DNA of 64,000 nt. Origin: Stutzerimonas nosocomialis (GTDB taxonomy: Bacteria; Pseudomonadota; Gammaproteobacteria; Pseudomonadales; Pseudomonadaceae). The notes below the pieces were generated by a model that searched no databases, was not told where the DNA came from, and saw only the letters and a list, made by a program, of their open reading frames with translations. Positions 1 through 41,395 of this stretch are shown here, one piece after another (within the stretch, counting starts at the first letter, position 1; each line of letters begins with the position of its first letter). Made by a program: the position numbers and the translations under genes. The stretch is taken from positions 1 through 64,000 of the forward strand of contig NZ_QLAE01000012.1 of assembly GCF_005876855.1 (NCBI RefSeq). Direction: 5' to 3'.

Positions 1-371
1 AGGCGGCTGGTGTCTTCGAAACGGTGGGTGAAGTAGTCCGGCAGGGTCAGCGCGTTCTGGTTGCGTTCGGTGTGCACCCGCAGGCGCCCGGCGACGAACA
101 GCCAGTTCAGCCAGGCACCGGCGATCAGGCCGATGGCGATCCAGCTCTCCGACAGGCCGGCGACGAAGATGGCGCCGGGCAGGCCCATCAGCAGCCAGCC
201 GCTCATGTCGGACGCGCCGGCCGACAGCGCGGTGACGAAACTGCCCAGGCTGCGGCCGCCCAGGATGTAGTCGTCGAAATTCTTGGTCGCCCGGTACGCG
301 ATGAAGCCGATCAGGATCATCGCGCCTATGTAGACCAGAAAGGTGATGAGTGTGGGTGTACTGATGCTCAT
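1..371 (-). CDS. putP: Sodium/proline symporter PutP, N-terminal part (runs off the window)
   Basis: Inner-membrane Na+/proline symporter of the SSS family that imports proline for PutA. The visible part is the first 123 or so residues, starting MSISTPTLITFLVYIGAMIL. It shows a first hydrophobic helix, then the motif DDYILGGRSLGSFVTALSAG and the segment ASDMSGWLLMGLPGA, both typical of SSS transporters. The gene is cut by the left edge of the window. It lies downstream of putA on the same strand with a 254-bp gap, so the two form the usual proline-use pair. Start ATG at 371 is preceded by a GAGGGAAC-like ribosome site. Confidence 0.95.
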   Translation of the reverse strand, partial: MSISTPTLITFLVYIGAMILIGFIAYRATKNFDDYILGGRSLGSFVTALSAGASDMSGWLLMGLPGAIFVAGLSESWIAIGLIAGAWLNWLFVAGRLRVHTERNQNALTLPDYFTHRFEDTSR

Positions 372-625
372 TGTGTTCCCTCGTTAGTTGTTGTCGATGG
401 ATGCGAGGGGAAGCCCCGAACCCACCTGGCAGAGGGCGATGGCCATGACGCCATCACCGGGCGACGAGCCAGAGCCGGCTCGTCAGTGGCGCAAGAGCGA
501 TACGCCAACTGTTCGTGTTGTTCTACGTCGCCGGCAGGCAAGGCGGCTGCCGGCTGGTTGCACGCGTGACGGTAATCAAGCGTTCGCGGGGCGGACGGCC
601 GAAACCGCCCACGCCCCGCCAGACC

Positions 626-3600: not shown

Positions 3601-3799
3601 GGCCGCGCACGGCCTCGATCAGGCTGCGGGCCTCGCGCCGGATCGCTTCGATGCCCGCCTCGCCAGGATCGGCGAGTTGCAACAATTGCTCGAGATACTG
3701 GGCTTCGTCGACGCAATAGGTAGCGCTGACCTGGGGAAAGAACTCGGCGGCTTTCAGGTTGGCGAAGTCGCCCTGCAAGACGTGACCGGCTTTGAACAT
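626..3799 (-). CDS. putA: Bifunctional proline dehydrogenase / L-glutamate-gamma-semialdehyde dehydrogenase
   Basis: 1057 residues. Oxidises proline to pyrroline-5-carboxylate with FAD, then to glutamate with NAD+. The N-terminal half is the proline dehydrogenase barrel (SYDM-type segments around residues 215-450, including RLVKGAYWDSEIK). The C-terminal half is the aldehyde dehydrogenase, with AETGGQNAM and the catalytic cysteine in SAGQRCSALR. The length fits the short PutA of P. aeruginosa, which lacks the N-terminal ribbon-helix-helix repressor domain. Control is therefore expected from the neighbouring AraC-type gene rather than by autorepression. Start ATG at 3799 has a GAGGAG ribosome site 8 bases upstream. 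A very long open frame on the other strand is a high-G+C shadow. Confidence 0.97.
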   Translation of the reverse strand: MFKAGHVLQGDFANLKAAEFFPQVSATYCVDEAQYLEQLLQLADPGEAGIEAIRREARSLIEAVRGRDNAVDTLDALLRQYSLDTQEGLMLMCLAEALLRVPDSATADALIRDKLNAAEWERHLGQSDNVLVNFAAWGLVMTGKVVDPDSADGRPKNVLGRLIRRSGEPVIRAAMNQAMKLMGKQFVLGRSISEALKNGRPEREKGYTYSFDMLGEAALTVEDAEKYMADYRRAVETVGAEPQVGPGPRPSVSIKLSALHPRYEVAQRERVLGELFESVRELAVLARRLDVGITIDAEEADRLELSLELFEKLMRDPAIAGWGEFGLVVQAYSKRCLPVLVWLTLLGKELGARIPLRLVKGAYWDSEIKQCQVQGLSGYPVYTRKEGTDTAYLACARYLLSEQTRGVIYPQFASHNAHTVSCILAMAQEAQATSGHAREFEFQRLHGMGDALYDTVIEKYRKNVRIYAPVGAHKDLLPYLVRRLLENGANSSFVHQLVDPRVPVESLIDHPVTQLRQFKTFGNPRIPLPPALYGDRKNSQGLNMNIQTQWNELTHAYQPFLSRQWQAAPVIGGKALGGTPSEVRCPYDLADVVGTAQFATAEHARQALDGLSAAWPRWNATPVEERAAILERLGDLLEANRAELMALCTREAGKTLQDGIDEVREAVDFCRYYALQARQKLGREELKGPTGERNELFHEGRGVFVCVSPWNFPLAIYLGQITAALVAGNTVLAKPAEQTSLIAARALELMFEAGLPTDAIAFLPGDGATLGSVFCRDPRVVGVCFTGSTDTARVINRQLAEKEGAIATLIAETGGQNAMIVDSTALPEQVVKDAIGSAFTSAGQRCSALRVLYVQRDIADRVIELLKGAMAELKVGPTHLRENDLGPVIDAEARESLLAHIDRLKGEGRLIAEARLPEGLNGHFVAPVAFEIGGIHELAREHFGPVLHVVRYDAADLEKVVAAINGTGYGLTLGVHSRNEETAARIESLARIGNLYINRNQVGAVVGVQPFGGNGLSGTGPKAGGPSYLLRFTNERTTSTNTTAVGGNASLLSLVDD

Positions 3800-3937
3800 C
3801 TCGCCGCTCCTCTGAGAGGTGAAGATAGGTATGGTTCTAGCTCACGACCGCACCACTCACCATGTGGGCGAGCTGCTTTCGCAAGGGGATGGCGGAATGT
3901 AGAGGCAGCCATCGAGCCGGTTCTTGCGCAAAGCTAT

Positions 3938-3958
3938 GGAGTTTTTGCGAAAAACTCC
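3938..3958. repeat. Perfect 9-bp inverted repeat between pruR and putA
   Basis: GGAGTTTTT, a 3-base GCG loop, then AAAAACTCC. It sits in the 251-bp gap downstream of the AraC-type regulator and upstream of putA. The stem could end pruR transcription or be part of the putA control region. The sequence alone does not decide which. Confidence 0.6.
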
Positions 3959-4050
3959 GCCCACTGCGGTTATCCGGCGGAGCCGGGCGCCGCGCACCAA
4001 GAAGGTGCAAGGCGGCGCGAGCGTAGGAGTTGCCCGGACGGGCGAAGCGG

Positions 4051-4806
4051 TCAGGCCGGCTCGTGGCGCATCCGCTTCGGCGTCAGCCCCAGGTAGCGAC
4101 GCATCGCGGTGGTCAGGGCGCTCTGGCTGGAAAACCCGCACTCCTCGGCGATCCGCACCAGCGGCAGCGGGCTTTCGCGCAGCATCCGCGCGGCGCGATC
4201 CAGGCGCGTCTTGAGCAGGTACTGGTGAGGCGTCAGCCCGACGCAATCCTTGAACTGCATGTGGAAGTGGCTCGGGCTCAGGCAGGCGACCTGCGCCAGC
4301 TCCGCCACGCTGATGCGCCTGGCGAGGTTTTCGTGGATGTGCGCATCGAGTCGCTCGATGTCCAGCGGCCCGGCCGGAACCCGCTGCCGCTCGCCGAACA
4401 GACGCAGGTGCAACGCCCGCAGCAGCACGCCCCCCAGGGCCCGCCCCAGCAGCGGGTCGCTGCCGTAGCGCGCGAGTTCGGCGCCGGCGTAGCTCAGCAG
4501 GTTCTGGAAATCGGCATCGAGCGCCGGATAGCGCGGCGTATCGAACAGCTGCGCGAGCAGGTCGCGATCGTCCTCGGGAAGGTTCTGCTCGTCGAGGTCG
4601 AGAATCAGCATGCGGTTGTCGCCGACCCCGGCGAACTCGTGCTCGGCATCGCCCGGCACCAGGCAGGCCCGCATGCGACAGACCTCGCCTCCCGCACCGT
4701 TGACCTCGAATTCCGCACGCCCAGCCAGCGACAGCACCAGCTGGTGATAGTCGTGGGCGTGTTCGTGGGCCTGGGAGTCCAGGCAGAGCAGGCGGGCTTG
4801 GAGCAT
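4051..4806 (-). CDS. pruR: AraC-family transcriptional regulator, PruR-like activator of proline catabolism
   Basis: 251 residues. The N-terminal cupin-like sensing domain (HEHAHDYHQLVLSLAG) is followed from about residue 155 by the two helix-turn-helix units of AraC proteins. These include RISVAELAQVACLSPSHFHM, the second helix-turn-helix around IAEECGFSSQSALTTAMRRY, and the closing LGLTPKRMR. In P. aeruginosa a gene in the same position, between putA and the asrA Lon-type protease, encodes PruR, which activates putA and putP in response to proline. The identity here is inferred from that synteny and the domain layout. I chose ATG 4806 because CGAGG lies 8 bases before it; a longer frame to 4902 has no good ribosome site. 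Confidence 0.85.
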   Translation of the reverse strand: MLQARLLCLDSQAHEHAHDYHQLVLSLAGRAEFEVNGAGGEVCRMRACLVPGDAEHEFAGVGDNRMLILDLDEQNLPEDDRDLLAQLFDTPRYPALDADFQNLLSYAGAELARYGSDPLLGRALGGVLLRALHLRLFGERQRVPAGPLDIERLDAHIHENLARRISVAELAQVACLSPSHFHMQFKDCVGLTPHQYLLKTRLDRAARMLRESPLPLVRIAEECGFSSQSALTTAMRRYLGLTPKRMRHEPA

Positions 4807-4933
4807 GGCGGTACCTCGGGATTCGGCCGACTTTACCCGAGCCCCGGGCCGCTTGCACAGCCAGGGGACGCGCGGGATTGAAATCACCGGCAGCGCTCCC
4901 ATCTATGAAGCATCCAATGCCAACAGGTGCCCC

Positions 4934-7324
4934 ATGAGCGATCAGGACAACACGCCGGAAATCGTCGAAGAGATCACCCTGTCGGGCGGCAGCCTGGCGC
5001 TGCCTGGCCAGACGCTGCCCGAGCGCGTCTACATCATTCCGATTCACAACCGCCCGTTCTTCCCGGCGCAGGTGTTGCCGATCATCGTCAACGAAGACCC
5101 CTGGGCCGAGACACTGGAGCTGGTCGCCAAGACGCCTCACCAGCGCCTGGCGCTGTTCTTCATGGACGGCCAGACGGAAGATGCCGCCAGCTTCGACCCC
5201 GACAGTCTGCCCCAGCACGGCACCCTGGTCCGGGTCCATCACGCCACGCGCGAAGGCGGCAAGCTGCAATTCGTCGCCCAGGGCCTGACACGGGTACGCG
5301 TACGCGGCTGGCTGCGTCGCAAGCCGCCCTACCTCGCCGAGGTCGACTACCCGCAGAGCGAGGATGACCCGCGCGACGAGGTCAAGGCCTACGGCATGGC
5401 GCTGATCAACGCCATCAAGGAGCTGCTGCCGCTCAACCCGCTCTACAGCGAAGAACTGAAGAACTACCTCAACCGCTTCAGCCCCAACGACCCGTCGCCG
5501 CTGGCCGATTTCGCCGCGGCGCTGACCACCGCGCCGGGCCTGGAACTGCAGGAAGTGCTCGACTGCGTGCCGATGCTCAAGCGCATGGAAAAGGTCCTGC
5601 CGCTGCTGCGCAAGGAAGTCGAGGTCGCCAAGCTGCAGAAGGAACTCACCGGGGAGGTGAACCGCAAGATCGGCGAGCGCCAGCGCGAGTTCTTCCTCAA
5701 GGAACAGCTCAAGATCATCCAGCGCGAGCTGGGCATCACCAAGGACGACAAGAGCGCCGACGCCGACGAGTTCCGCGCCCGGCTGGCCGGCAAGACCCTG
5801 CCCGCTCCGGTACGCAAGCGCATCGACGAGGAGCTCGGCAAGCTGTCGATCCTGGAAACCGGTTCGCCCGAATACGCCGTCACCCGCAACTACCTCGACT
5901 GGGCCACCGCCCTGCCCTGGGGCGTCTATGGCGAGGACAAGCTCGACCTCAAGCGCGCCCGCAAGGTACTGGACCAGCATCACGCCGGGCTCGACGACAT
6001 CAAGAGCCGCATCCTGGAGTTTCTCGCGGTGGGCGCCTTCAAGGGCGAGATCGCAGGCTCCATCGTCCTGCTGGTCGGCCCGCCCGGCGTCGGCAAGACC
6101 AGCATCGGCAAGTCCATCGCCGAATCGCTCGGCCGCCCGTTCTACCGCTTCAGCGTGGGCGGCATGCGCGACGAGGCCGAGATCAAGGGCCACCGGCGCA
6201 CCTATATCGGCGCGATGCCCGGCAAGCTGGTGCAGGCACTCAAGGATGTCGAGGTGATGAACCCGGTGATCATGCTCGACGAGATCGACAAGCTCGGCGC
6301 CAGCTACCAGGGCGACCCGGCATCGGCCCTGCTCGAGACCCTCGATCCGGAACAGAACGTCGAGTTTCTCGACCACTACCTGGACCTGCGCCTGGACCTG
6401 TCCAAGGTGCTGTTCGTCTGCACCGCCAACACGCTGGACTCGATCCCCGGCCCGCTGCTCGACCGCATGGAGGTGATCCGCCTGTCCGGCTACATCGCCG
6501 AGGAAAAACTCGCCATCGCCAAGCGCCACCTGTGGCCGAAGCTGCTGGAGAAGACCGGCGTGCCGAAGCAGCGGCTCTCGCTCAGCGACAGCGCCCTGAA
6601 GGCGGTGATAGACGGCTATGCACGGGAAGCGGGCGTGCGTCAGCTCGAGAAACAGCTGGGCAAGCTGGTACGCAAAAGCGTGGTGCAGCTGCTGGAGGAC
6701 CCGGAGCGCAGCATCAGGATCGGCCCGAACGACCTGGACGACTACCTCGGCAAACCGGTGTTCCGCAGCGAACAGGTGCTCTCGGGCGTCGGCGTCATCA
6801 CCGGGCTGGCCTGGACCAGCATGGGCGGCGCGACGCTGCCGATCGAGGCGACCCGCATCCATACCCTCAACCGCGGCTTCAAGCTGACCGGCAAGCTCGG
6901 CGACGTGATGAAGGAGTCGGCAGAGATCGCCTACAGCTACGTCAGCTCGCACCTGAAGGAATTCAAGGGCGATCCGCAGTTCTTCGACGAGGCCTTCGTG
7001 CACCTGCACGTGCCCGAAGGCGCGACGCCCAAGGATGGCCCGAGCGCAGGCATCACCATGGCCAGCGCCCTGCTCTCCCTGGCGCGCGGCCAGGCGCCGA
7101 AGAAAGGCGTGGCCATGACCGGCGAGCTGACGCTGACCGGACAGGTCCTGCCGATCGGTGGCGTACGCGAGAAGGTCATTGCGGCGCGTCGGCAGAAAAT
7201 CTTCGAACTGATCCTGCCCGAGCCCAACCGGGGCGACTTCGAAGAGCTGCCCGACTACCTCAAGGAAGGCCTCAAGGTGCATTTCGCCCGGCGTTTCGCC
7301 GACGTCGCCAAGGTGCTGTTCTAA
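4934..7324 (+). CDS. lon: ATP-dependent Lon-type protease (AsrA-like second Lon)
   Basis: 796 residues, normal for Lon. It has an N-terminal substrate-recognition LAN domain (PIHNRPFFPAQVLPIIV), an AAA+ module with Walker A GPPGVGKTS and Walker B VIMLDEIDKL, and a C-terminal protease domain. The catalytic serine is in KDGPSAGITMAS and the lysine in REKVIAARR. In P. aeruginosa the Lon paralogue in this neighbourhood is AsrA, a stress-induced cytoplasmic protease distinct from the housekeeping Lon; the same role is inferred here. It is transcribed divergently from pruR. ATG 4934 starts MSDQDNTPEIVEE; frames extending upstream have no support. Confidence 0.93.
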   Translation: MSDQDNTPEIVEEITLSGGSLALPGQTLPERVYIIPIHNRPFFPAQVLPIIVNEDPWAETLELVAKTPHQRLALFFMDGQTEDAASFDPDSLPQHGTLVRVHHATREGGKLQFVAQGLTRVRVRGWLRRKPPYLAEVDYPQSEDDPRDEVKAYGMALINAIKELLPLNPLYSEELKNYLNRFSPNDPSPLADFAAALTTAPGLELQEVLDCVPMLKRMEKVLPLLRKEVEVAKLQKELTGEVNRKIGERQREFFLKEQLKIIQRELGITKDDKSADADEFRARLAGKTLPAPVRKRIDEELGKLSILETGSPEYAVTRNYLDWATALPWGVYGEDKLDLKRARKVLDQHHAGLDDIKSRILEFLAVGAFKGEIAGSIVLLVGPPGVGKTSIGKSIAESLGRPFYRFSVGGMRDEAEIKGHRRTYIGAMPGKLVQALKDVEVMNPVIMLDEIDKLGASYQGDPASALLETLDPEQNVEFLDHYLDLRLDLSKVLFVCTANTLDSIPGPLLDRMEVIRLSGYIAEEKLAIAKRHLWPKLLEKTGVPKQRLSLSDSALKAVIDGYAREAGVRQLEKQLGKLVRKSVVQLLEDPERSIRIGPNDLDDYLGKPVFRSEQVLSGVGVITGLAWTSMGGATLPIEATRIHTLNRGFKLTGKLGDVMKESAEIAYSYVSSHLKEFKGDPQFFDEAFVHLHVPEGATPKDGPSAGITMASALLSLARGQAPKKGVAMTGELTLTGQVLPIGGVREKVIAARRQKIFELILPEPNRGDFEELPDYLKEGLKVHFARRFADVAKVLF

Positions 7325-7347
7325 CCGCGCCTGCCCGGCGCGCCGCA

Positions 7348-7379
7348 GCCCGCGCCTGGGCCTTTGTGCCCGGGCGGGC
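7348..7379 (+). terminator. GC-rich stem-loop after lon
   Basis: The two arms GCCCGCGCCTGGGC and GCCCGGGCGGGC can pair imperfectly around CTTTGT. It sits just after the lon stop and before icp. There is no T-run, so its role as an intrinsic terminator is uncertain. Confidence 0.4.
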
Positions 7380-7415
7380 TATCCTTGCGGTTCGTTTCAC
7401 GGATCGGTCACGCCC

Positions 7416-7808
7416 ATGCCTTCGGTACCCCGCCTCATCCTGCCCGCCTCGCTGACCTTGCTCGCCGCCTGCTCGAGCACGCCGCCCAGCAGTGTTTCGC
7501 TCAAGGACGACCGCAGCTGCCCGCTGAATCTGCACGCCGGTCAGACGCTGATCGTCAGCCTGCCCAGCAACCCCACCAGCGGTTACCGCTGGAACCTGCA
7601 GGATGCCGCGCCCGGGCAGCTCAAGAGCCTCGGCCCCGAGGTGTTCAGCTCACCGGACAAGGACGTGATCGGCGGAGAAGGGCTTTCGACCTGGCGCTTC
7701 CAGGTCCAGGGCGGCGGCAGCGGACGGCTGTACCTGGCCTACCAGCAACCCTGGGACGCCGCCGCCGAACCGGCCGGACTGTTCGATTGCCGGATCGAGG
7801 TGCGCTGA
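7416..7808 (+). CDS. icp: Chagasin-family cysteine peptidase inhibitor, predicted lipoprotein
   Basis: 130 residues. The N-terminal signal ends in a lipobox (LTLLAACSS), predicting a lipid-anchored cysteine at residue 19 or so. The mature part carries the inhibitor loops of the chagasin/ICP family: NPTSGYRW (NPTTGY/F loop), a glycine-rich GGGSGRLYLAY segment and QPW (RPW loop). These loops block papain-like cysteine peptidases. In P. aeruginosa the icp gene follows asrA in the same order. The target peptidase is not evident in this window. Confidence 0.88.
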   Translation: MPSVPRLILPASLTLLAACSSTPPSSVSLKDDRSCPLNLHAGQTLIVSLPSNPTSGYRWNLQDAAPGQLKSLGPEVFSSPDKDVIGGEGLSTWRFQVQGGGSGRLYLAYQQPWDAAAEPAGLFDCRIEVR

Positions 7809-7877
7809 CGCGCAGTACGCGCCGCGCCCTGCGTTTCCGCTACAATGCCGGCCCTTTTCGCCGCATCGCCAAACGCC

Positions 7878-8621
7878 GTGAGCCACGATCCCGACCACCT
7901 GTTCGCCAAGCCCCTGCCCCACGTACCGGACTTCGTGTTCAACGAGGACGTGGTGCGCGTATTCCCGGACATGATCAAGCGCTCGGTGCCCGGCTACCCG
8001 ACCATCGTCGAGAACATCGGCGTGCTCGCCGCGCAATTCGCCCAGCCCGACAGCTGCCTGTACGACCTCGGCTGCTCGCTGGGTGCGGTCACCCAGGCGC
8101 TGCGACGCCATGTGAAGGCTGACAACTGCAGGGTCATCGCGGTGGACAACTCGGCGGCGATGACCACCCGCTGCAACGAATACCTGCACGCGCAGGACTC
8201 AATGTTCCAGGAGCTGCTGCCGGTCAGCGTGATCGAGGCGGATATCCTGACCCTTGCGTTCGAGCCCGCCTCGCTGGTCGCCCTCAACTTCACCCTGCAG
8301 TTCATCCCGCCCGAGCAGCGCCCGGCGCTGCTGGCGCGCATTCGCCAGGCGCTGCTGCCAGGCGGCGCGCTGATCCTCTCGGAGAAGCTGCGCTTCGAGG
8401 ATGAACAGGAGCACGCCCTGCTCACCGACCTGCACATCGCCTTCAAGCGTGCCAATGGCTACAGCGAGCTGGAAATCGCCCAGAAGCGCAGCGCCATCGA
8501 GAACGTGATGAAGCCCGACAGCCTGGAGACCCATCGTCAGCGCCTGCTCGAGGCCGGCTTCTCCAAGGTGGTGCCCTGGTTCCAGTGCCTGAATTTCGCC
8601 TCGCTGATTGCCCTGCCATGA
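7878..8621 (+). CDS. cmoA: Carboxy-S-adenosyl-L-methionine synthase
   Basis: 247 residues from the GTG at 7878, which matches the usual CmoA length. An ATG at 7845 in the same frame would add 11 residues, but it overlaps a TACAAT -10-like sequence. CmoA converts S-adenosylmethionine and prephenate to carboxy-SAM, the cofactor for 5-oxyacetyl-uridine in tRNA position 34. The SAM-binding motif is [14 protein letters not shown], and the N-terminal [20 protein letters not shown] is typical. The stop overlaps the cmoB start in ATGA, so the two are translationally coupled. Confidence 0.95.
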
Positions 8622-9580
8622 ATCTCGACCTCTCCCCCCTGGCCTGGCGTCTGGCCGGCACTCCCCTGGCCGCCTGGGCCAACGGTCTGCAGCAGCAGCT
8701 CGACGCCAAGCTCGAGATCGGCCACGGCGACCTGCCACGCTGGCAACGCGCCGTCGATGCCCTGCCCGACCTGACGCCGAGCGACGTCCGCCTGGATCAG
8801 GGCGTACGCCTCTGCGCCGCCGGCCAGGAACAGGTCCATGGACAGACGCTCGAAGCACTGCGCGGGCTGATCCCCTGGCGCAAGGGCCCGTTCGAGATCT
8901 TCGGCGTGCCGGTGGACACCGAATGGCGTTCGGACTGGAAATGGTCCCGCGTCGCCCCGCATCTGGATCTGGTCGGCAAGCGCATCCTCGACGTCGGCTG
9001 CGGCAACGGCTACTACATGTGGCGCATGCTCGGCGCCGGCGCCCACAGCGTGGTCGGCATCGACCCCAACTGGCTGTTCTTCTGCCAGTTCCAGGCGATC
9101 AAGCGCTACCTGCCTGAGCACCCCGCCTGGCACCTGCCGCTGGGCATCGAGGAGCTGCCGGCCCGGCTCGAAGGCTTCGACACGGTGTTTTCCATGGGCG
9201 TGCTCTATCACCGCCGCTCGCCCATCGACCATTTGCTCGACCTGCGCGACTGCCTGCTCAAGGGCGGCGAACTGGTGTTGGAAACCCTGGTGGTCGAGGG
9301 CGACGAGCACACCGCGCTGGTGTCGGAAGACCGCTACGCGCAGATGCGCAACGTCTGGTTCCTGCCCTCCGTGCCGGCGTTGCAGCTGTGGCTGCGGCGC
9401 GCCGGCTTCGTCGACGTTCGCTGCGTCGACGTCAGCCGCACCAGCACCGAGGAGCAGCGCAGCACCGAATGGATGCGCTACCAGTCGCTGCCCGACTTCC
9501 TCGACCCACAGGACCCGGGCAAGACCATCGAAGGGCTGCCGGCGCCGATGCGCGCGGTGATCGTCGCCCGCAAGCCCTGA
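8618..9580 (+). CDS. cmoB: tRNA U34 carboxymethyltransferase
   Basis: 320 residues. Transfers the carboxymethyl group of carboxy-SAM to 5-hydroxyuridine at the tRNA wobble position. The SAM-type fold shows [15 protein letters not shown], then [16 protein letters not shown] and [15 protein letters not shown], all characteristic of CmoB. It overlaps cmoA by four bases (ATGA), forming a two-gene operon for one modification. It converges with pdxJ, leaving a 38-bp gap. Confidence 0.96.
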
Positions 9581-9618
9581 ATCACACGTTGACTAGCGTC
9601 CCATGATAGGTGGACGAC

Positions 9619-10362
9619 TCAGCGATGCGCAGAGCTGGCGATCAGGTGCTTCATTTCCTTGACCGCCTGCTTGAAGCCGACGAACAGGGCATGGGCGACG
9701 ATGGCATGGCCGATGTTCAGCTCGTGGATACCCTCGATCTCGGCCACCGCCTGGGTGTTGTGGTAATGCAGGCCGTGGCCGGCATTGACCACCAGTCCGA
9801 GCTCGCGCCCAAGCGCCACGCCCCGACGGATGCGCTCGAGTTCCTCGGCCTGCTCGGCCGGCGTTTCGGCATCGGCATAGCGGCCGGTGTGCAGCTCGAT
9901 GGCCGGCGCGCCGATCCGCCGCGCCGCCTCGATCTGCTGGGGTTCGGCGTCGATGAACAGCGAGACTTCGCTGCCGAGCCGACTCAGCCGCTCGACTGCC
10001 GCCCGGATACGCGCTTCCTGGCCGGCGACATCCAGCCCGCCTTCGGTGGTCAGTTCCTGGCGGGTTTCCGGGACCAGGCAGATGTGCTCGGGGCGGATGC
10101 TCTCGGCGAAGTCGAGCATCGCGTCGGTGACGCCCATCTCGAAGTTCATCCGCGTCTGCAGCGCGTCCTTCATCATCCGCACGTCGCGCTCCTGGATGTG
10201 ACGACGGTCTTCGCGCAGGTGCAGGGTGATACCGTCCGCCCCGGCCTCCTCGGCATCCAGCGCCGCCTTGAGCGGGTCCGGATAGCGGGTGCCGCGGGCC
10301 TGGCGCAGGGTCGCGACGTGATCGATGTTGACGCCAAGCAGAATACGACTGGATTCAGCCAC
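9619..10362 (-). CDS. pdxJ: Pyridoxine 5'-phosphate synthase
   Basis: 247 residues. Condenses 1-deoxyxylulose 5-phosphate with 3-amino-2-oxopropyl phosphate to pyridoxine phosphate in the DXP-dependent vitamin B6 pathway. The TIM-barrel signatures are [18 protein letters not shown] at the N-terminus, [12 protein letters not shown] in the middle and [11 protein letters not shown] near residue 195. The start overlaps the recO stop by 8 bases, at the end of the lepA-lepB-rnc-era-recO-pdxJ run. Confidence 0.97.
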
Positions 10363-11047
10363 GGGTAGGCTCCTTGAGGTTCATGAACAGCTCGCGGCTG
10401 ACCAGGGGTCGGCCGCCCAGATGAGGGGCGAGGGCCTGTCGCATCAGGCGCTTGGCCGCCGCCAGCGCGCCCGGCGATTGCCAGTCGGCTTCGGCCATCG
10501 CCAACAGTTCTGCGCCCTGGAACAGCCCGGGCTGAAACTGCCCGACCGGCTCCAGACCCGCGTCGGGCACCAGCCGATAGAGCCCGTCCGCAGCCACAGG
10601 CTGACCCTGGATATCCTGGTCCAGCGCAAAACCGTACCCGAGTTCGGACAACAATCGCCACTCGAAGGCTCGCAGCAACGGCTCCAGCGGACGCTTGGCC
10701 GCCAGCGCCGGCAGTGTCGCCGCGTAGTGCTCGAACAGGTCGGGGTGGGCGTCTTCGGCGGGCAACAGCCGAATCAGCAACTCGTTGAGGTAGAGACCGC
10801 TGAACAGCGCATCGCCGTCGAGCCAGTGGGCAAGCCCTGCGCCCTCCAGCCGCGCCAGGGTCTTGAGCTCGCTGCGGCCGCGCAGCTCCACTTCCAGCGG
10901 CACGAACGGCCGCGCCAGGCTGCCGGCCCGGCCCCGGGCGCTGCGCAGCACCGCGCGCAGCCGCCCCTGGGGCGTGAACAGGTCGACCAGGGCGCTGCTT
11001 TCCTTGTAGGGACGGCTATGCAGGACGAAAGCGGCTTGAGCGGTCAT
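10355..11047 (-). CDS. recO: DNA repair protein RecO
   Basis: 230 residues. RecO works with RecF and RecR to load RecA onto SSB-coated single-stranded DNA. The N-terminal OB-fold begins [20 protein letters not shown], followed by the alpha-helical body with [22 protein letters not shown]. It lies between era and pdxJ, the usual gammaproteobacterial order, and overlaps pdxJ. Confidence 0.95.
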
Positions 11048-20441: not shown

Positions 20442-22061
20442 ATGAGCCAACTCTTCCAGCACGACGTCCTGGTCATAGGCAGCGGGGCGGCCGGCCTGAC
20501 ACTGGCCCTCAACCTGCCCGACGACATGAGCATCGCGGTGATCAGCAAGGGCGATCTGGCCAACGGCTCGACCTATTGGGCCCAGGGGGGCGTGGCCGCC
20601 GTGCTAGACACCCGCGACACGGTCGACTCCCATGTAGCCGACACGCTGAATGCGGGCGCAGGGCTGTGCCGTGAGGAGGCCGTACGCTTCACCGTCGAAC
20701 ACAGCCGGGAGGCGATCGGCTGGCTGATCGAACAGGGCGTGCCCTTCACCCGCGACGACAGCGCCGCCCTGGAAGACGGCGGCTTCGAATTCCACCTCAC
20801 ACGCGAAGGCGGACACAGCCACCGGCGGATCATCCATGCCGCCGACGCCACCGGCGCCGCCATCTTCGACACGCTGCTCGGCAAGGCGCGGCAAAAGCCG
20901 AACATCGAGCTGCTACAGCAGCGCGTCGCGGTGGACCTGATCACCGAGAAAAAGCTCGGCCGCCCCGGTCGCCGCTGCCTCGGCGCCTATGTCCTCAACC
21001 GCGAGACGGGCGCGGTCGACACCCATCAGGCGCGCTTCGTGGTCCTGGCCTCCGGCGGGGCGGCGAAGGTCTACCTCTATACCAGCAACCCCGACGGCGC
21101 CTGCGGCGACGGGATCGCCATGGCCTGGCGGGCCGGCTGCCGGGTAGGCAATCTGGAATTCAACCAGTTTCATCCGACCTGCCTGTATCACCCCCAGGCC
21201 AAGAGCTTCCTGATCACCGAGGCGCTGCGCGGCGAGGGCGCCCTGCTGAAGCTGCCCGACGGTGAACGCTTCATGGCCCGCTTCGACCCCCGCGCCGAGC
21301 TCGCGCCCCGCGACATCGTCGCGCGCGCCATCGACCATGAAATGAAGCGCCTGGGCATCGACTGCGTCTACCTGGACATCAGCCACAAGCCCGCCGAGTT
21401 CGTGAAGTCGCACTTTCCCACCGTCTACGAGCGCTGCCTCGAATTCGGCATCGATATCACGCAGCAACCGATACCGGTGGTCCCGGCTGCGCACTACACC
21501 TGCGGCGGCGTGCTCGTCGACAGCCAGGGTCGCACCGACGTGCCCGGCCTGTATGCCATTGGCGAAACCAGCTTCACCGGACTGCACGGCGCCAACCGGA
21601 TGGCCAGCAATTCCTTGCTCGAATGCTTCGTCTACGCTCGCTCGGCGGCCGACGACATCCTGCGCGAGCACACAGCGGTGGCCGATCCCGCCGACCTGCC
21701 GGCCTGGGACGCGAGCCAGGTGACCGATTCGGACGAAGACGTGATCATCGCCCACAACTGGGACGAGCTGCGGCGGTTCATGTGGGACTACGTCGGAATC
21801 GTCCGCACCAGCAAGCGCCTGCAGCGCGCCCAGCACAGGGTGCGGCTGCTGCTCAGCGAGATCGACGAGTTCTACAGCAACTACAAGGTCAGCCGGGACC
21901 TGATCGAGCTGCGCAACCTGGCGCTGGTCGCCGACCTGATGATCCGTTCGGCCATGGCGCGCAAGGAGTCCAGGGGCCTGCACTACACCCTCGATTACCC
22001 CGAGCAGCTGCCCGAGGCGGTGGACACGATCCTTACGCCGCCCTCTTGGAGGCCGGTTTAA
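20442..22061 (+). CDS. nadB: L-aspartate oxidase, with an element-supplied C-terminus
   Basis: 539 residues. FAD enzyme that oxidises L-aspartate to iminoaspartate, the first step of NAD synthesis. The dinucleotide motif [14 protein letters not shown] is at the N-terminus; the active-site region has [10 protein letters not shown] and [13 protein letters not shown], and [20 protein letters not shown] is in the C-terminal half. The last residues, [12 protein letters not shown], differ from the stranded tail [11 protein letters not shown] found 4.35 kb downstream. The 3' end was therefore rebuilt by an integrated element; the catalytic part is untouched and the enzyme should be active. Confidence 0.96.
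21873..22021 (+). repeat. attL-side direct repeat (149 bp, within nadB)
   Basis: Identical over 149 bases to 26227-26375. The match breaks at one base on each side (C/T at 21872, G/A at 22022) and then continues as weaker similarity. Upstream is host nadB. Downstream is element sequence that provides the last codons of the current nadB. Confidence 0.9.
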
Positions 22062-22111: not shown

Positions 22112-22356
22112 CGCGCGCGGAAAAGTAGATGCGCAGTCAGGGAACCCGAGGGCCGGCACGGGGGAATGGCGCTGGGTTTCTTATTGATAAGGGTTCACAG
22201 AAATTTTTGTTGGGTTCATCGAGAGGCCCTTTTAGCGACGAACTGACGACGCGGCCAATCCATTAGCAAGCTAACGAAGCGAAAAGAAAGCCCCGAGTCC
22301 CTAATGGTCTTGGAGCTTCCTAATACGCACATACTGGTTTGCCGCGCGCGGCTTAG

Positions 22357-22902
22357 CTAAACGTACTCACGGCCAGCCCGACGCGTCTTATCGGCCTCAG
22401 AGCGCGCCATGCGGGCATACCGTTGGCGCTCCTTCTGCTCAGTCGTCAAGAGTGGTCTGGGTCCCTTCTTCAAGGCTCGGAGTGCTTCCCTACGGATGTC
22501 CTTTTCGCGCTCCAGCAAGGCGGCGCTATGGCGGTATCCCATCGTCCGCATTTGGTCAGCCACAGCGGCCATGACCTCGGGCAAGTCAAGGATCGCCTCG
22601 AAGGCGTCGAAGACCATATCTTCAAATTCGGGCGACACCCAGGCAGCGTAACGGATGACTGCCTGCTTCGCTGCGAGCGTCTGGGAGCCAGCTCGGCCAC
22701 GATTTAACGAGCCGATTTTTCCGGCCTGTTCTAAGCGCTGAGCCTCTTTGCGTTCTACGAATCGTTTCGGCTGCTTGCCCTTCGGCAACCTGAGCGTCTG
22801 CCAGATTTCTGTCAGGTCCCATTGGCCCGCATCGTTGGCCTTGAACGGGTGCCCCTCGATTGTGATGAGGTGCCCGGCGTGCTTGTGCTTGATGTCGATC
22901 AT
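22357..22902 (-). CDS. KilA-N domain protein of the nadB element
   Basis: 181 residues from ATG 22902, with AGAGGA about 8 bases upstream. The KilA-N DNA-binding domain covers about residues 15-110: HPFKANDAGQWDLTEIWQ, then KRFVERKEAQRLEQAGKIG, the aromatic RYAAWVSPEFEDMVFDAFEA. The C-terminal third is basic and charged (REALRALKKGP, KERQRYARMARSEADK). KilA-N proteins are phage regulators, antirepressors or lethal proteins; the role here is unknown. It is the last gene of the element, facing the nadB 3' end, after a 630-base leader starting at a T7-like promoter. Confidence 0.8.
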   Translation of the reverse strand: MIDIKHKHAGHLITIEGHPFKANDAGQWDLTEIWQTLRLPKGKQPKRFVERKEAQRLEQAGKIGSLNRGRAGSQTLAAKQAVIRYAAWVSPEFEDMVFDAFEAILDLPEVMAAVADQMRTMGYRHSAALLEREKDIRREALRALKKGPRPLLTTEQKERQRYARMARSEADKTRRAGREYV

Positions 22903-23530
22903 GTCGTGAATCCTCTTTGGTCGAACCTCCCAGTCGCGCCCACAGCCCGACCACCAAGGCCCCACGACAGGGCACCGGGACATAGCAAGAAGGTTCGACC
23001 GAAAAGGCTTGGTGTGCGAGTGAACGATGGACCCAGCCGCGAAGCTGTAGCGGTCCTAAGTGACGGAGAGTTGCGAAGAGAATCAGGATCGTGGTCTGCC
23101 AAGACCCGTCCTAACTTGGAGAGACCTGGGACCTAAAGTTAATCTCAGAGAGTTAATTGCTTGTTTCACAAGACAATTGCTGGATCTCAGAGAGAATCTT
23201 TAAGTAAAAGCCCCCCGTGTTCTCATGGTCAGTTCGAGCGCCCCCAGTTCTCGAAAAGGCTCAGGGACAAGTCCAATGGTCAGCTTTGCGCCGACACCTG
23301 AGCGAACACCACGATACGGCCTGTCTGCTTGAGGCTCGGACTTGCCGTCGAGCTGGTAGAGACACCAGCCGACGATCCGATTGTCCTCCCGCTGTTCACC
23401 ATGGCATGCCCACGAAGGGCAGCGCTGTAGCGAACGGAGAGGCGACCCGAAGAGGGTCAGCAGGGCCAGCCGTGAAGCTGGCAAGAAGGAAACGGAAGGG
23501 CCGCGTGGCTGAGCACGAGCGGGCTTATCT
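22903..23530 (-). other. Non-coding, repeat-rich leader between the T7-like promoter and the KilA-N gene
   Basis: About 630 bases without a convincing gene. It contains several pairing elements: 10-bp inverted repeat GGTCGAACCT / AGGTTCGACC (22919-22928, 22991-23000); nested hairpin 23029-23056 (GGACC...GGTCC around CAGC/GCTG); 11-bp direct repeats ATCTCAGAGAG (23142-23152, 23184-23194) flanking a hairpin at 23155-23178; hairpins GACCC/GGGTC (23444-23458) and GCCAGC/GCTGGC (23465-23482). A three-block repeat, GCTGTAGCG, ACGGAGAG, CGAAGAG, occurs at 23044-23080 and again at 23424-23454. A structured RNA or processed leader is possible (inference). Confidence 0.5.
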
Positions 23531-23560
23531 TCCTGTCTCCCCTATTAGTGAGGGTTTTTA
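23531..23560 (-). promoter_or_regulatory. T3/gh-1-type phage RNA polymerase promoter
   Basis: On the minus strand this reads TAAAAACCCTCACTAATAGG and then GGAGACAGGA. It contains AACCCTCACTAA, the core of the T3 promoter (AATTAACCCTCACTAAAGGG), and begins TAAAAACCCTCACT like promoters of P. putida phage gh-1. It ends with a GGGGAGA start resembling the T7/T3 GGGAGA. There are single-base length differences from T3 in the initiation region. It overlaps the tandem stop codons TAA-TAG of the upstream membrane protein and points at the KilA-N gene. No single-subunit RNA polymerase is encoded in the element. Confidence 0.75.
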
Positions 23561-23835
23561 ACCCGTGAGAATTTCCGCACCGCTTCCTCTATTGAGCGAA
23601 GCATCCAGCTCCATAGGAAACAGCATGCGGCCAGTAGCACGAGTGCCGTAACGACTCGCATGGTAGATGTGACCACAGTGCCGTCGATGAGGGATGCCAC
23701 TATTTGTGCAGGGGAAGCCCGCCCCGGGTAGGCCCATACCAGTTCATCGTATAGACGCATGGCTACCAGGGCGGGCACTGCGAAAGAAGCCCATATAAAG
23801 GATTTCAGAATCTGAGATGGACCTGCCGTAAGCAT
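23545..23835 (-). CDS. Small two-helix membrane protein of the nadB element
   Basis: 96 residues from ATG 23835, chosen because GGAGG lies 7 bases upstream. Two hydrophobic segments are seen: FIWASFAVPALVAMRLYDEL near the N-terminus and VVTALVLLAACCFLWSWML near residues 62-80. A charged tail follows (RSIEEAVRKFSRVKNPH). It ends in tandem stops that overlap the T7-like promoter. I do not recognise a family. Small inner-membrane proteins in phage elements can be holins, exclusion proteins or toxins; nothing here separates these. Confidence 0.6.
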   Translation of the reverse strand: MLTAGPSQILKSFIWASFAVPALVAMRLYDELVWAYPGRASPAQIVASLIDGTVVTSTMRVVTALVLLAACCFLWSWMLRSIEEAVRKFSRVKNPH

Positions 23836-23863: not shown

Positions 23864-24703
23864 TTACCGTCTCCGGTCGACTCCATGCACCTCAGCCATG
23901 GGGAGCATAAGGTTCTGGCTCACCGGGTCGTTCGGGACGAAGTGTCGAAGAGTTCCAAAGCGCCGTCCTGTAGCCCTGCGCGTCAGCTCCCCGGCGAACT
24001 GCTGGCCTTCCACCGTGGTGCTCTCGTTCACGTTGTAGGCGCCAGTCTTGCGGATGGATGGGAGGACCTCCTCGGTGACCCACTTGCGGAATGGCTCGGA
24101 GGCCGGAGCGTGGCCCCACAGGAGCATCTGATAGGTCGCCGCCTCAGAAAACATCCACGAGGTTGCCTTTAGGGTGTTCCCGCGTCCCTCTGTAATTTCC
24201 GCAGGGACACCCAATGTCCCCATCTGCCTTGTCTGCGTGTGGCCGTGGTGCTTGGCCGTGGCCCATGCCGCATAGCGGACAACTTGTCCGTTAAGACTTC
24301 CTTCGCTCGGAAGGTCTGGCATTTCCTGACAGGCCTCCAAGACATCACGCAAAGCCAGGAAGTTTTCTGGACCCCTTTAGGGCTCTCCAGGGCCTCTACA
24401 ATTTGTATAGACCCCCTTAGGCTTCTTCAAGGTCTCTGCTTGAAATAGAGACCCGAACTGATGGACAAAGCGGTGCTCCATGCCCTTCTCGTCTCCCGGA
24501 AGACTGACCGAGGATTTATCGATCAGTGTCGCCAAAGGGTGGCCGCACTTGTGGTACTTGCGGGCCAGGTTAACCGAGCCAGCCGGGTCCTTCAGCCCCG
24601 CCGCCCTTGCGACTTGCGTAGCGATGAACAGGATGTCGTGCTCAGGGTGACCCACCAGGATGTCCAACTCGATGTCCATGAAGGACTGCTTGGTGAATTG
24701 CAT
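23864..24703 (-). pseudogene. BRO-N domain protein, interrupted by an in-frame stop
   Basis: The N-terminal part (24703-24377, 108 residues) carries HDILFIATQVARAAGLKDP, the first half of a BRO-N domain. The C-terminal part (24352-23864) carries FSEAATYQMLLWGHAPASEP and FRKWVTEEVLPSIRKTGAY, the second half. Both are in the same frame and are separated by a single TAA at 24377-24379; a TTG at 24352 could restart. Next to the stop lie two imperfect 28-base repeats. BRO-N proteins are phage or virus DNA-binding and antirepressor proteins. It is most simply a nonsense-disrupted gene, but two separately translated pieces cannot be ruled out. Confidence 0.65.
24368..24435 (-). repeat. Imperfect 28-base tandem units at the BRO-N stop codon
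   Basis: Units at 24368-24395 and 24408-24435, 21 of 28 bases alike, with a 40-base period. Each holds a CCTAAGG or CCTAAAG core, and one can form a short AGACC/GGTCT stem. The in-frame TAA of the BRO-N gene is part of one CCTAAAG. CCTAAAG repeats flank the terminal repeats of phage T7, so this may echo phage origin, but chance cannot be excluded. Confidence 0.45.
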
Positions 24704-24998: not shown

Positions 24999-26011
24999 TT
25001 ATTCATCCTTGATTGTGAGGCCGATGCTTGCGCCTTCAGCTTGGTCCGATGTTGACCTAAAGGCCACCGCTAAAGCCGCTGCCAGCTTCTCCACGGCAAC
25101 CCGCTGATCTCCCCCGTAAAGGTCATAGCTGATCGATTGCGAGCTATGCCCGAGGATATCCTGGGCAATTCCTACAGGCACTCCGCACGCCTTCAACCGC
25201 GAGGCCATCGAGTGGCGTAAAGAATGGAAGGATTGCACCCGGTCCGCTTCGAGGCTCAGGGCCTCCCTAAGAAACGAATTGTTTACCTGGGAGAAATAGC
25301 CGTAGCCTTGATCGAACAGCCGTGCTCCTGCCGTCTCCGCTTCGACAAACCGGAGGAACGCCTCAAGGTCAAAACCGTAGGCGCCATCGACCAGCGGCAC
25401 CAAGCGGGCCGAATAGCGATTCTTAAGGGTCTTGCCTTCCCGGCTGTTGATGTCTATGACCCATACGTCCCCGACTTGCCGAACATCCTCCTTCGTGAGC
25501 TGGTGAAGCTCCCCGATGCGAGCGCCTGTGAGCGCAGCCAAGGAGACTGACCACCGGACCCACGAGTCCGCACGCTGAGCTTTCGCCATCAGTTCGGCCA
25601 CTTGTTCCGGCGAGAGCGCCTCGCGGGAGCTGTCCGCCCCCTTCGTGATCTTCAGTTTCTTAATATTGCTATCAAAGATAGCATAATAATCGATTCTATC
25701 TATCACGCTCAGTAGCGGCCCAGTGTCCCCTTGGAGCCTACGTTCAGCCCCGCGAGCAATCTCACGAGCCAACGGGACCGCTCGAGGCTGTGCGACCGTC
25801 AGTGAAGAGGCTCTTTCGGCCTTCCCCAGGTCGTCGCTTAGGTCCGAGTATGTCATCCCCAAGGAATCGAGCGCCTCCCACTCCGTAGGAGTCGCAAGAA
25901 AAGGCCCTCAGCGGTCTCCCTGAGCTGCGCCCTTAGCTCCGGCCAAGTGGCGTCTGGGTTGTCGAGGTGGAAGGCCCTCAGGGCCGCCTGAAGCTGCTTG
26001 CTGGTAACCAT
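24999..26011 (-). pseudogene. Tyrosine recombinase (integrase) of the nadB element, with a -1-type frameshift near its start
   Basis: The catalytic domain is intact in the frame 25862-24999: TGARIGELHQL (Arg), then HSLRHSMASRL (His-x-x-Arg), ILGHSSQSISYDLYGG (His and the nucleophile Tyr). The first 52 residues (MVTSKQLQAALRAFHLDNPD from 26011) lie in another frame ending at 25853. Inserting one base at the T-run 25899-25902 would join them as GLFLATPTEWEALDSLGMTY, giving about 337 residues. The upstream piece ends in an ATGA overlap with ATG 25856, and GGGAGG precedes an in-frame TTG at 25862. The short form might therefore be made by coupled translation. Confidence 0.7.
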
Positions 26012-26130
26012 TGCGGTAGATCGGTCATTGGTGCGGAGCGATACCGTACAGCATGCCACAGAGCCCAGCGGGCGGACCCTAAGGTAGTAGATACCGGAGC
26101 GTCTGTAGTGCCACGGCTTAGCGAGCTGAG

Positions 26131-26220: not shown

Positions 26221-26412
26221 GAGTTTTACAGCAACTACAAGGTCAGCCGGGACCTGATCGAGCTGCGCAACCTGGCGCTGGTCGCCGACCTGATGATCCG
26301 TTCGGCCATGGCGCGCAAGGAGTCCAGGGGCCTGCACTACACCCTCGATTACCCCGAGCAGCTGCCCGAGGCGGTAGACACTATTCTGGTGCCGCCCACC
26401 TTCGCCGACTGA
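26221..26412 (+). pseudogene. Stranded original 3' end of nadB
   Basis: Encodes [20 protein letters not shown] through [11 protein letters not shown] and a TGA, the last 63 codons or so of nadB, without the rest of the gene. Codons before 26227 are element sequence; those after about 26375 are the original host tail. The tail overlaps the stop of convergent ygfX by 32 bp, which marks the pre-insertion arrangement nadB><ygfX. Confidence 0.9.
26227..26375 (+). repeat. attR-side direct repeat (149 bp)
   Basis: Identical to 21873-22021. The repeat length is far above a usual tyrosine recombinase core, so the true crossover is somewhere inside. The extra identity reflects the gene-rebuilding segment carried by the element. 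Confidence 0.9.
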
Positions 26413-41215: not shown

Positions 41216-41395
41216 GTGGCCGATAAAGAAGAAATCGAGATCGAAGACGATTTCGTCGCCGAAGACGAAGACGACGTCGCCGAAGCCCCTGTCGAAGTGG
41301 CGAAGACCAACCTGACCAAGCGTCGGATCATCGACAACCTGCTCGAAGAGCGTCGCCTGCAAAAGCAGCTGAACGACTTCGACTTCGACATCTGA
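41216..41395 (+). CDS. Small acidic protein, PA3496 family
   Basis: 59 residues from a GTG start with GGAG 8 bases upstream. Highly acidic N-terminus (ADKEEIEIEDDFVAEDEDD) followed by a basic helical end (KRRIIDNLLEERRLQKQLND). In P. aeruginosa a protein of this type follows nth (PA3496) and has been described as a putative envelope integrity protein; its molecular role is not clear. It is followed by a hairpin. Confidence 0.75.
   Translation: MADKEEIEIEDDFVAEDEDDVAEAPVEVAKTNLTKRRIIDNLLEERRLQKQLNDFDFDI

What the first reader, a model, noticed from the sequence alone, without database searches (positions are those of the whole stretch)
23531..23560. T3/gh-1-type phage promoter in a chromosomal element with no T7-like RNA polymerase
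The minus strand carries AACCCTCACTAA followed by a GGGGAGA start, very close to the T3 promoter and to gh-1 promoters of Pseudomonas. Host RNA polymerase does not use such sites. The KilA-N gene and its leader would then be transcribed when a T7-like phage supplies its polymerase. That would be a simple way for a satellite to sense a helper, or for a defence gene to be triggered by the phage it blocks.
Basis: partly seen in the sequence, partly recalled or inferred. Interest (0 to 1): 0.8.

Follow-up and report, generated by a model that had tools for sequence, protein, structure and literature searches.

The report
Satellite read by phage's RNA polymerase
A small piece of parasitic DNA in a Pseudomonas-type chromosome carries the start signal and, faintly, the DNA-packaging tag of T7-like viruses, as many related elements do, which suggests that such elements wake up and hitch a ride when a T7-like virus infects the cell.

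Summary
The site is real. On the minus strand, 23562-23540 reads GTTAAAAACCCTCACTAATAGGG, identical over 23 nt to a site before the major capsid gene of a T7-like phage contig: a gh-1/Warsawvirus-type promoter.

It lies in a 4.2-kb element between 177-nt repeats of a nadB-like gene end, with a broken integrase, a broken Bro-N gene fused to a gp16 remnant, a conserved leader and a KilA-N-like gene. No T7-like RNA polymerase was found in the genome.

Related integrases occur in 40 of 398 family genomes. Twenty neighbourhoods show att-type repeats (4.6-10.4 kb, median 6.7). With the window, 21 elements hold 26 promoter-like sites, all in one direction; 303 kb of flanks hold none. Eighteen of 21 carry a copy of the T7-like concatemer junction (start of the terminal repeat). 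The window's copy (22217-22143, minus) is the only match in its genome at E 0.01, but weak.

Best reading: a decayed member of a family of satellites of T7-like phages, in which the helper's polymerase transcribes the satellite toward a mimic of the helper's packaging site. Ten literature searches listed no such family. No experiment was possible.

The parts
21867..22043 (+). att-type direct repeat, far end: 3' end of a nadB-like gene (gene name inferred from the translation)
   Evidence: 177-nt repeat, 96% identical to 26221-26397 (aligned)
22143..22217 (-). sequence like the start of the terminal repeat (concatemer junction) of gh-1/3MF5-type phages
   Evidence: Profile trained without the window: E 5.5e-5 in 48 loci, 3.9e-6 in the window alone, reversed decoy silent; first-round profile gave only E 1.1; only match at E 0.01 in the 4.76-Mb genome, E 0.0038
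22357..22983 (-). KilA-N-like regulator gene, 208 aa, downstream of the promoter
   Evidence: Pfam KilA-N E 0.0037, below the curated cut-off; phrog_129 transcriptional regulator E 3.5e-11; family present in 13 loci of the set, window included
22984..23542 (-). noncoding leader; core 23196-23542 conserved in 3 other elements
   Evidence: Alignments; fold z -3.39; RNAalifold 81 pairs, 14 with changes on both sides, 4 sequences only; no Rfam match at E 5
23540..23562 (-). gh-1/Warsawvirus-type phage promoter, predicted start at about 23542
   Evidence: 23-nt identity to the site before the capsid gene of L001
23545..23886 (-). possible 113-aa ORF that runs into the promoter, no significant family match
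23867..23959 (-). remnant of the C-terminus of a T7 gp16-type internal virion protein, fused to the Bro-N frame
   Evidence: 54.8% identity over 31 aa to the gp16 of the P. matsuisoli element, E 3e-6; a second short piece in another frame, E 0.014
23864..24352 (-). Bro-N gene, C-terminal part
   Evidence: Pfam Bro-N E 1e-6; 71% identity over 63 aa to the P. baetica Bro-N
24377..24703 (-). Bro-N gene, N-terminal part (gene broken)
   Evidence: 80% identity over 45 aa to the P. baetica Bro-N
24999..25862 (-). tyrosine integrase, C-terminal part
   Evidence: Pfam Phage_integrase E 5.4e-16; matches residues 282-494 of the P. baetica integrase
25886..26125 (-). tyrosine integrase, N-terminal fragment in another frame; the middle of the gene is missing
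   Evidence: Residues 28-108 of the 3MF5 integrase; residues 9-91 of the P. baetica one
26221..26397 (+). att-type direct repeat at the integrase end

Best explanation
The element is a decayed member of a family of integrative satellites of T7-like phages (gh-1/Warsawvirus group). The satellite has no RNA polymerase, terminase or portal of its own. When a T7-like helper infects, the helper's single-subunit polymerase reads the satellite's phage-type promoters, which switches on the leader and the genes downstream. Transcription runs toward a copy of the helper's concatemer junction, where the helper's polymerase would pause and its terminase start packaging satellite DNA. Shown by sequence: promoter, its recurrence and direction, the junction copy, the att repeats, the absence of a polymerase gene, the breakage of this copy. 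Inferred: use of the promoter by a helper polymerase, pausing, packaging and transfer.
For: Promoter identical over 23 nt to a T7-like capsid-gene promoter. 26 sites in 145.7 kb of 21 att-flanked elements, 26 of 26 on the integrase-sense strand, 0 in 303 kb of flanks. 18 of 20 exact 15-mers in 398 genomes lie in these elements. Junction copy: the 3MF5 and gh-1 terminal repeats start just after CCTTTRAGAATCTGA-AGAAAAATCTGA, with CCCCCGT further on, and satellites carry the same; 18 of 21 elements, 17 of them 255-584 bp from the far repeat. The model also finds, untrained, the far end of a long T7-like prophage 1.2 kb after terL, and a site 0.7 kb after terL in a prophage remnant. Integrase shared with a T7-like phage. 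gp16-type genes in several elements. Own genome lacks the polymerase. T7/T3 polymerase with gp3.5 pauses at the junction and interacts with gp18/gp19 (passage in PMC3276506).
Against: No transcript, excision or particle has been seen. The window copy is broken and its junction score is weak: E 1.1 in the first round, and 0.0038 in the genome search, where 12 of the 51 sites over 398 genomes lie between 1e-5 and 0.01 and about 4 are expected by chance. Five of 21 elements have no promoter at this threshold and 3 of 21 no junction. Over all 42 fetched neighbourhoods only 20 have a site within 3 mismatches of TAAAAACCCTCACTANNAGG; of the 13 with lower-scoring integrases (L082-L094) 1 does and 1 has a junction. 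The junction profile was trained on 17 of the 18 elements counted. RNAP-bearing phages are scattered among satellites in the integrase tree, so a single satellite origin is not shown.
Confidence: 0.84

Rival explanations
1. It is only the rubble of a T7-like prophage: an integrase-bearing T7-like phage integrated and lost nearly everything, leaving one of its own promoters.
For: The integrase family is shared with phage 3MF5 and with the polymerase-bearing loci of G349 and G347; the element holds a gp16 remnant; RNAP phages are interspersed in the integrase tree.
Against: Twenty other loci have an att-flanked layout at 4.6-10.4 kb without polymerase, portal or terminase matches. Among them 9 share a 337-aa shell-like protein and 8 a KilA-N-like gene; the shell-like protein has no match in 50,697 phage records. 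The order integrase, Bro-N, gp16, promoter, leader, KilA-N, junction is not the 3MF5 order.
Confidence: 0.1
2. The promoter mainly arms a defence: KilA-N or another downstream gene is expressed only when a T7-like phage brings its polymerase, and blocks that phage, with or without transfer of the element.
For: The promoter, leader and KilA-N frame survive while integrase and Bro-N are broken; a PICMI satellite encodes a defence gene (passage of PMC10803314).
Against: The genes downstream differ between elements; the junction copy points to packaging; KilA-N is a weak match to a regulator family and nothing here links it to killing.
Confidence: 0.25
3. The promoter serves replication and packaging rather than gene expression: transcripts prime replication or deliver the polymerase to the junction, and the genes downstream are incidental.
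For: All promoter-like sites point in the direction of the junction's strand; the leader is long and noncoding; junction pausing starts packaging in T7/T3.
Against: In P. guineae a promoter sits directly before a gene with a plausible ribosome site, and in nearly all elements with both the last promoter is more than 1 kb before the junction.
Confidence: 0.3
4. Chance resemblance, or a terminator-like hairpin.
For: The 12-mer alone is not unusual; two identical 15-mers in G083 are hairpins followed by T.
Against: 23-nt identity to a phage promoter, recurrence, one direction and enrichment in the element family; here no GGAGGGTTT arm follows.
Confidence: 0.02

Closest known systems
PICMI, satellites of virulent Vibrio phages (PMC10803314, passages seen)
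   Same: Small (6,110 bp for PICMI115), integrated in the chromosome, woken by a virulent phage
   Different: Integrates by fis; packaged as an 8-copy concatemer, apparently by a headful mechanism; encodes no capsid-remodelling genes; the passages seen describe no helper-read promoter. Here the sites are nadB-like and tesA-like gene ends, with T7-type promoters and a terminal-repeat mimic
PICI, cf-PICI and P4-like satellites (recalled; only passing mention seen)
   Same: Integrative, use helper packaging; some elements here encode a shell-like protein as cf-PICIs encode a capsid
   Different: As recalled, those sense a phage protein; here the sensor would be transcription by the helper's own RNA polymerase
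Warsawvirus 3MF5 and T7-like prophages of Pseudomonas (LUZ100 paper PMC10134795, passages)
   Same: Same integrase family, promoter class, terminal-repeat start and gp16 family (3MF5)
   Different: Phages with RNA polymerase, replication, capsid and terminase genes; about 40 kb
Phage gh-1 (AF493143) promoters and terminal repeat
   Same: TTAAAAACCCTCACTA core; the same junction sequence at the annotated start of the terminal repeat
   Different: The window's promoter continues ATAGGGGAGA, closer to Warsawvirus-like phages such as L001

Membership tests
Phage satellite (general) | Integrative element with its own integrase and att repeats | tested here: met
   Repeats in 20 relatives and the window; the window's integrase is broken
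Phage satellite (general) | Lacks the genes needed for independent growth | tested here: met
   No match to the 3MF5 RNA polymerase, DNA polymerase, portal or terminase at E 1e-5 in the 20 att-flanked loci or the window; no polymerase in G000
Phage satellite (general) | Shares regulatory or packaging sequence with a helper | tested here: met
   Promoters and junction; junction weak in the window itself
Phage satellite (general) | Mobilised by a helper phage | not testable with these tools
   Needs infection experiments
PICMI | Integration next to fis | tested here: not met
   Window repeat is the end of a nadB-like gene; others a tesA-like gene (names read from translations)
PICMI | Packaged as a concatemer | not testable with these tools
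   Sizes cluster near 6.7 kb but no particle data exist
Capsid-forming satellite (cf-PICI-like) | Encodes its own capsid protein | tested here: inconclusive
   337-aa family in 11 loci; model pLDDT 46.8; the 50 listed PDB matches are by title HK97-type shells, but TM-scores are only 0.22-0.37; no profile match to helper capsid; not found in the window element
T7-like temperate phage or prophage | Own single-subunit RNA polymerase and structural genes | tested here: not met
   Only a gp16 remnant and the integrase in the window
gh-1/Warsawvirus-type promoter | Sequence match to promoters of such phages | tested here: met
gh-1/Warsawvirus-type promoter | Transcription by the cognate polymerase | not testable with these tools
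   In vitro transcription needed

The most novel reading that the evidence does not exclude
A new, widespread family of satellites of T7-like phages that uses one helper protein twice: the helper's RNA polymerase is the alarm that switches the satellite on, and, by running from satellite promoters into a copied concatemer junction, it is also the tag that sends satellite DNA to the helper's terminase. Subtypes bring their own HK97-type shell protein or their own gp16 ejection protein, and one subtype a conserved structured leader RNA.
Probability: 0.55. Interest if true: 0.92.

Novelty: new variant of a known kind. Interest (0 to 1): 0.87.

Why it matters
T7 is the textbook phage, yet the searches made here listed no satellite of a T7-like phage. 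If right, these elements listen for a helper in the simplest way possible, by carrying a promoter only the helper can read, and they point to the short sequence that T7-like packaging recognises, because at least 18 compact elements keep it outside a phage genome. Apparently intact relatives in named Pseudomonas species make both claims testable with gh-1-type phages.

Tried and rejected
T3 identity: the match is to gh-1/Warsawvirus promoters, not T3 itself (recalled). Pfam PF00940 search of the genome proved nothing, since its controls were silent; replaced by the 3MF5 polymerase. Leader in phages: only the promoter matched. Leader words in IMG/VR: one pattern found nothing, the other 2 contigs, with no more similarity than one 18-nt match. 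Leader (P. baetica query) in 398 genomes: the window, G068 and G259 strongly, 9 other genomes by short matches at E 5e-4 to 0.01. Rfam: none. Shell-like protein against T7-like capsid proteins and its neighbour against T7-like scaffolds by profile comparison: nothing. Shell-like protein in phage records: nothing; in PDB sequences: nothing. The 8.7-kb record of phage phi C106 looked like a packaged satellite but carries terminase genes and is a contig piece of a phage. One origin of the satellites was not shown by the integrase tree of 38 rows. Matching of promoter class with junction class (NNAGG with CAT, RTGG or AAGG with CAC) gave Fisher p 0.007 without L061 and 0.04 with it; classes were assigned by eye after seeing the data and rows are related, so it is only suggestive. 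A size of one sixth of a helper genome (about 6.7 of 40 kb) is noted, not claimed. Elements L072, L086 and L093 have neither promoter nor junction at the thresholds. Loci L082-L094 were only scanned.

Full report
THE SITE. The minus strand from 23562 reads GTTAAAAACCCTCACTAATAGGGGAGACAGGAAGATAAGCCCG. The core AACCCTCACTAA is exact; the bare 12-mer would not be remarkable (2 matches at up to 2 mismatches, 1.34 expected). The longer string is. The 18-mer AAACCCTCACTAATAGGG occurs in 2 stretches of 2.9 million IMG/VR contigs. Both are T7-like phages: tblastn with proteins of Pseudomonas phage 3MF5 finds portal, scaffold, capsid and others, and the sites lie just before the capsid gene (L001) or the scaffold gene (L002). 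The window and L001 share 23 nt without a break. In annotated phages, blastn of the 51-nt region matched 17 records, all Pseudomonas phages, the best at an annotated promoter before the RNA polymerase gene of 3MF5. gh-1 promoters share TTAAAAACCCTCACTA.

THE ELEMENT. The element lies between two 177-nt direct repeats, 96% identical, which are the 3' end of a nadB-like gene (the gene name is my reading of the translation). Reading from the integrase end on the minus strand: an integrase with its middle missing (residues 9-91 and 282-494 of the P. baetica relative remain, in two frames), a Bro-N gene in two pieces, the last 31 residues of a gp16-type internal virion protein fused to the Bro-N frame (54.8% identity, E 3e-6), a possible 113-aa ORF, the promoter, a noncoding leader of about 560 nt, a KilA-N-like gene, and a packaging-junction-like sequence. 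The KilA-N assignment is weak in Pfam (17.5 bits against a cut-off of 23.8) and better in PHROGs (E 3.5e-11). The genome has no T7-like RNA polymerase by the 3MF5 query (3 of 30 genomes searched had one, G000 not).

RELATIVES. The pattern TAAAAACCCTCACTANNAGG occurs in 6 stretches of the collection of 84,980 species genomes: P. guineae, P. matsuisoli, P. baetica, Pseudomonas sp. BBP2017, Pseudomonas sp. UBA9188, and one Lokiarchaeia MAG that I did not follow. The P. matsuisoli element carries a 1401-aa gp16-type protein, 67.7% identical to that of 3MF5 over 99% of the query. An integrase profile matched 40 of 398 family genomes at E 1e-60. I fetched 42 neighbourhoods. Twenty show a direct repeat between the integrase end and a point downstream (E 0.026 for L072, 2e-4 or below for the others), giving elements of 4.6-10.4 kb, median 6.7, 11 of 20 between 6.4 and 6.9 kb (lengths include the repeats). 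None of these twenty holds an RNA polymerase, DNA polymerase, portal or terminase match to 3MF5 at E 1e-5; one (L062) holds a gp16 fragment. Two loci do hold a near full-length polymerase, L070 (G349) and L082 (G347), and L063 a C-terminal scrap. So the integrase family is shared by T7-like phages and compact elements; 3MF5 itself has one. In a tree of 38 integrases the polymerase-bearing phages fall in three places among the compact elements.

PROMOTERS IN RELATIVES. With one rule (at least 13 of 16 positions of TTAAAAACCCTCACTA, CTCAC required), the 21 att-flanked elements including the window hold 26 sites in 145,682 bp, 26 of 26 in the sense of the integrase gene; 303,437 bp of flanking DNA hold none. 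Sixteen of 21 elements have at least one; L062, L072, L073, L086 and L093 have none. By another rule (up to 3 mismatches to TAAAAACCCTCACTANNAGG, which favours one promoter type) 20 of all 42 neighbourhoods have a site, and 1 of the 13 with lower-scoring integrases, L082-L094. Without using the integrase, the exact 15-mer TAAAAACCCTCACTA over 398 genomes gives 20 sites in 13 genomes, against 1 site for the pattern read backwards. Eighteen of 20 lie beside these integrases; the two in G083 are hairpins followed by T, terminator-like.

PACKAGING JUNCTION. Blastn of the elements against 3MF5 showed a short match near the far end of many elements to 3MF5 41235-41386, across the start of the right terminal repeat at 41332. 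The gh-1 repeat (annotated start 37143) begins in the same sequence: CCTTTAAGAATCTGACAGAAAAATCTGAATGGTC then ACCTCTCAAGG and, some 20 nt on, TTCCCCCGTAGG. A profile from 9 elements, 3MF5 and gh-1 found 9 further elements at E below 0.01 that were not in its training (L014 and L061 are the same one); the window scored only E 1.1 then. After iteration, with the window always left out, the window scored E 5.5e-5 among 48 loci and 3.9e-6 alone; reversed sequences gave no hit. Eighteen of 21 elements carry it, all on the integrase-sense strand, 17 of them 255-584 bp from the far repeat and one (L071) 4.3 kb from it; 17 of these 18 were in the iterated training set. A sequence-only covariance model (19 satellites, 3MF5, gh-1, without the window) was run over 398 genomes. 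The window's genome has one match, 22217-22156 minus, E 0.0038. At E below 1e-5 there are 39 sites in 36 genomes, 19 of the sites from training, 30 of the genomes integrase-positive; I did not check each site's place in its element. Twelve more sites, the window's among them, lie between 1e-5 and 0.01, where about 4 are expected by chance in 398 genomes. The six integrase-negative genomes: one (G023) shows the satellite shell-like gene next to the junction, one (G384) a T7-like prophage remnant with the junction about 0.7 kb after terL, and four (G466, G288, G455, G450) nothing recognised beyond a weak integrase match in one. In the T7-like prophage of G349, not in training, the match lies about 1.2 kb after terL, some 38 kb from the integrase; both ends of that prophage were seen, not its middle. 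The P. matsuisoli and UBA9188 genomes have their junctions on other contigs, which I take to be the other ends of their elements.

HOW IT WOULD WORK. [quoted passage not shown] The satellites show promoters of that polymerase class, all in the sense of a junction copy near the far end. The simplest account is that helper infection both turns on the satellite genes and delivers polymerase and terminase to the satellite's junction. Shown: sequences, positions, directions, recurrence. Inferred: every step in the cell.

OTHER PARTS. A 337-aa protein family occurs in 11 loci of the set (one a partial frame), 9 of them att-flanked elements, with a smaller partner upstream in 10 of 11, and in G023 and UBA9188. 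It has no significant Pfam or PHROG match and no PDB-sequence match and no match in 50,697 phage records. Its model is poor (mean pLDDT 46.8). I take it as a probable HK97-fold shell protein. It was not found in the window element, which belongs to the gp16 type. The leader of the window is shared by P. matsuisoli, P. baetica and G259 elements, folds more stably than 100 of 100 shuffles (z -3.39) and shows 14 of 81 predicted pairs with changes on both sides, from only 4 sequences; its role is unknown.

LITERATURE. Ten searches of the open PMC library listed no paper that by title or opening of abstract describes satellites of T7-like phages; I saw passages only, of PMC10803314, PMC10134795, PMC3276506 and PMC12846349. 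T7-like prophages of Pseudomonas are known. The library holds few preprints and lacks most subscription papers, so this is no proof of absence; PMC10085698, a large satellite survey, was not held.

LIMITS. The window copy is degenerate. Counts rest on one genome per species. Profiles were trained on part of the set they are counted on; the untrained hits are stated above. Related elements are not independent events. Gene names nadB and tesA are read from sequence, not from annotation.

Noticed in passing
window 20442-22061: The nadB-like gene upstream of the element keeps an open frame because the element supplies a replacement 3' end; the original end remains at 26221-26397.
   Followed up: partly
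L009 13173-17378; L054; L064; L068: Integrase elements that carry a complete or nearly complete gp16-type internal virion protein (broken in L064 and L068) but no other 3MF5-like structural gene in the stretch fetched.
   Followed up: partly
L082 (G347:C35) 27-10622: Integrase, T7-like RNA polymerase, gp15- and gp16-type genes close together and no capsid gene between them: a satellite with its own polymerase, or a deleted prophage.
   Followed up: no
L063 (G456:C51): Integrase, a C-terminal scrap of T7-like RNA polymerase, gp14- and gp15-type genes, two promoter-like sites, and a junction match about 18 kb from the integrase: perhaps an intermediate between prophage and satellite.
   Followed up: no
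L014 196-1155 (-): BBP2017 element carries an antisense 319-aa gene that to my eye has FtsK-gamma-like and HIRAN-like parts, opposite to the promoter-driven strand.
   Followed up: no
L171-L174 (G466, G288, G455, G450): Junction-like matches (model E 5e-7 to 4e-6) without promoter-like site or clear T7-like genes nearby: perhaps other mobile elements with the same packaging tag, or chance.
   Followed up: partly
L110, L118 (G083): The 15-mer TAAAAACCCTCACTA also arises inside terminator-like hairpins (CCCTCACTAGGAGGG), a trap for promoter scans.
   Followed up: yes
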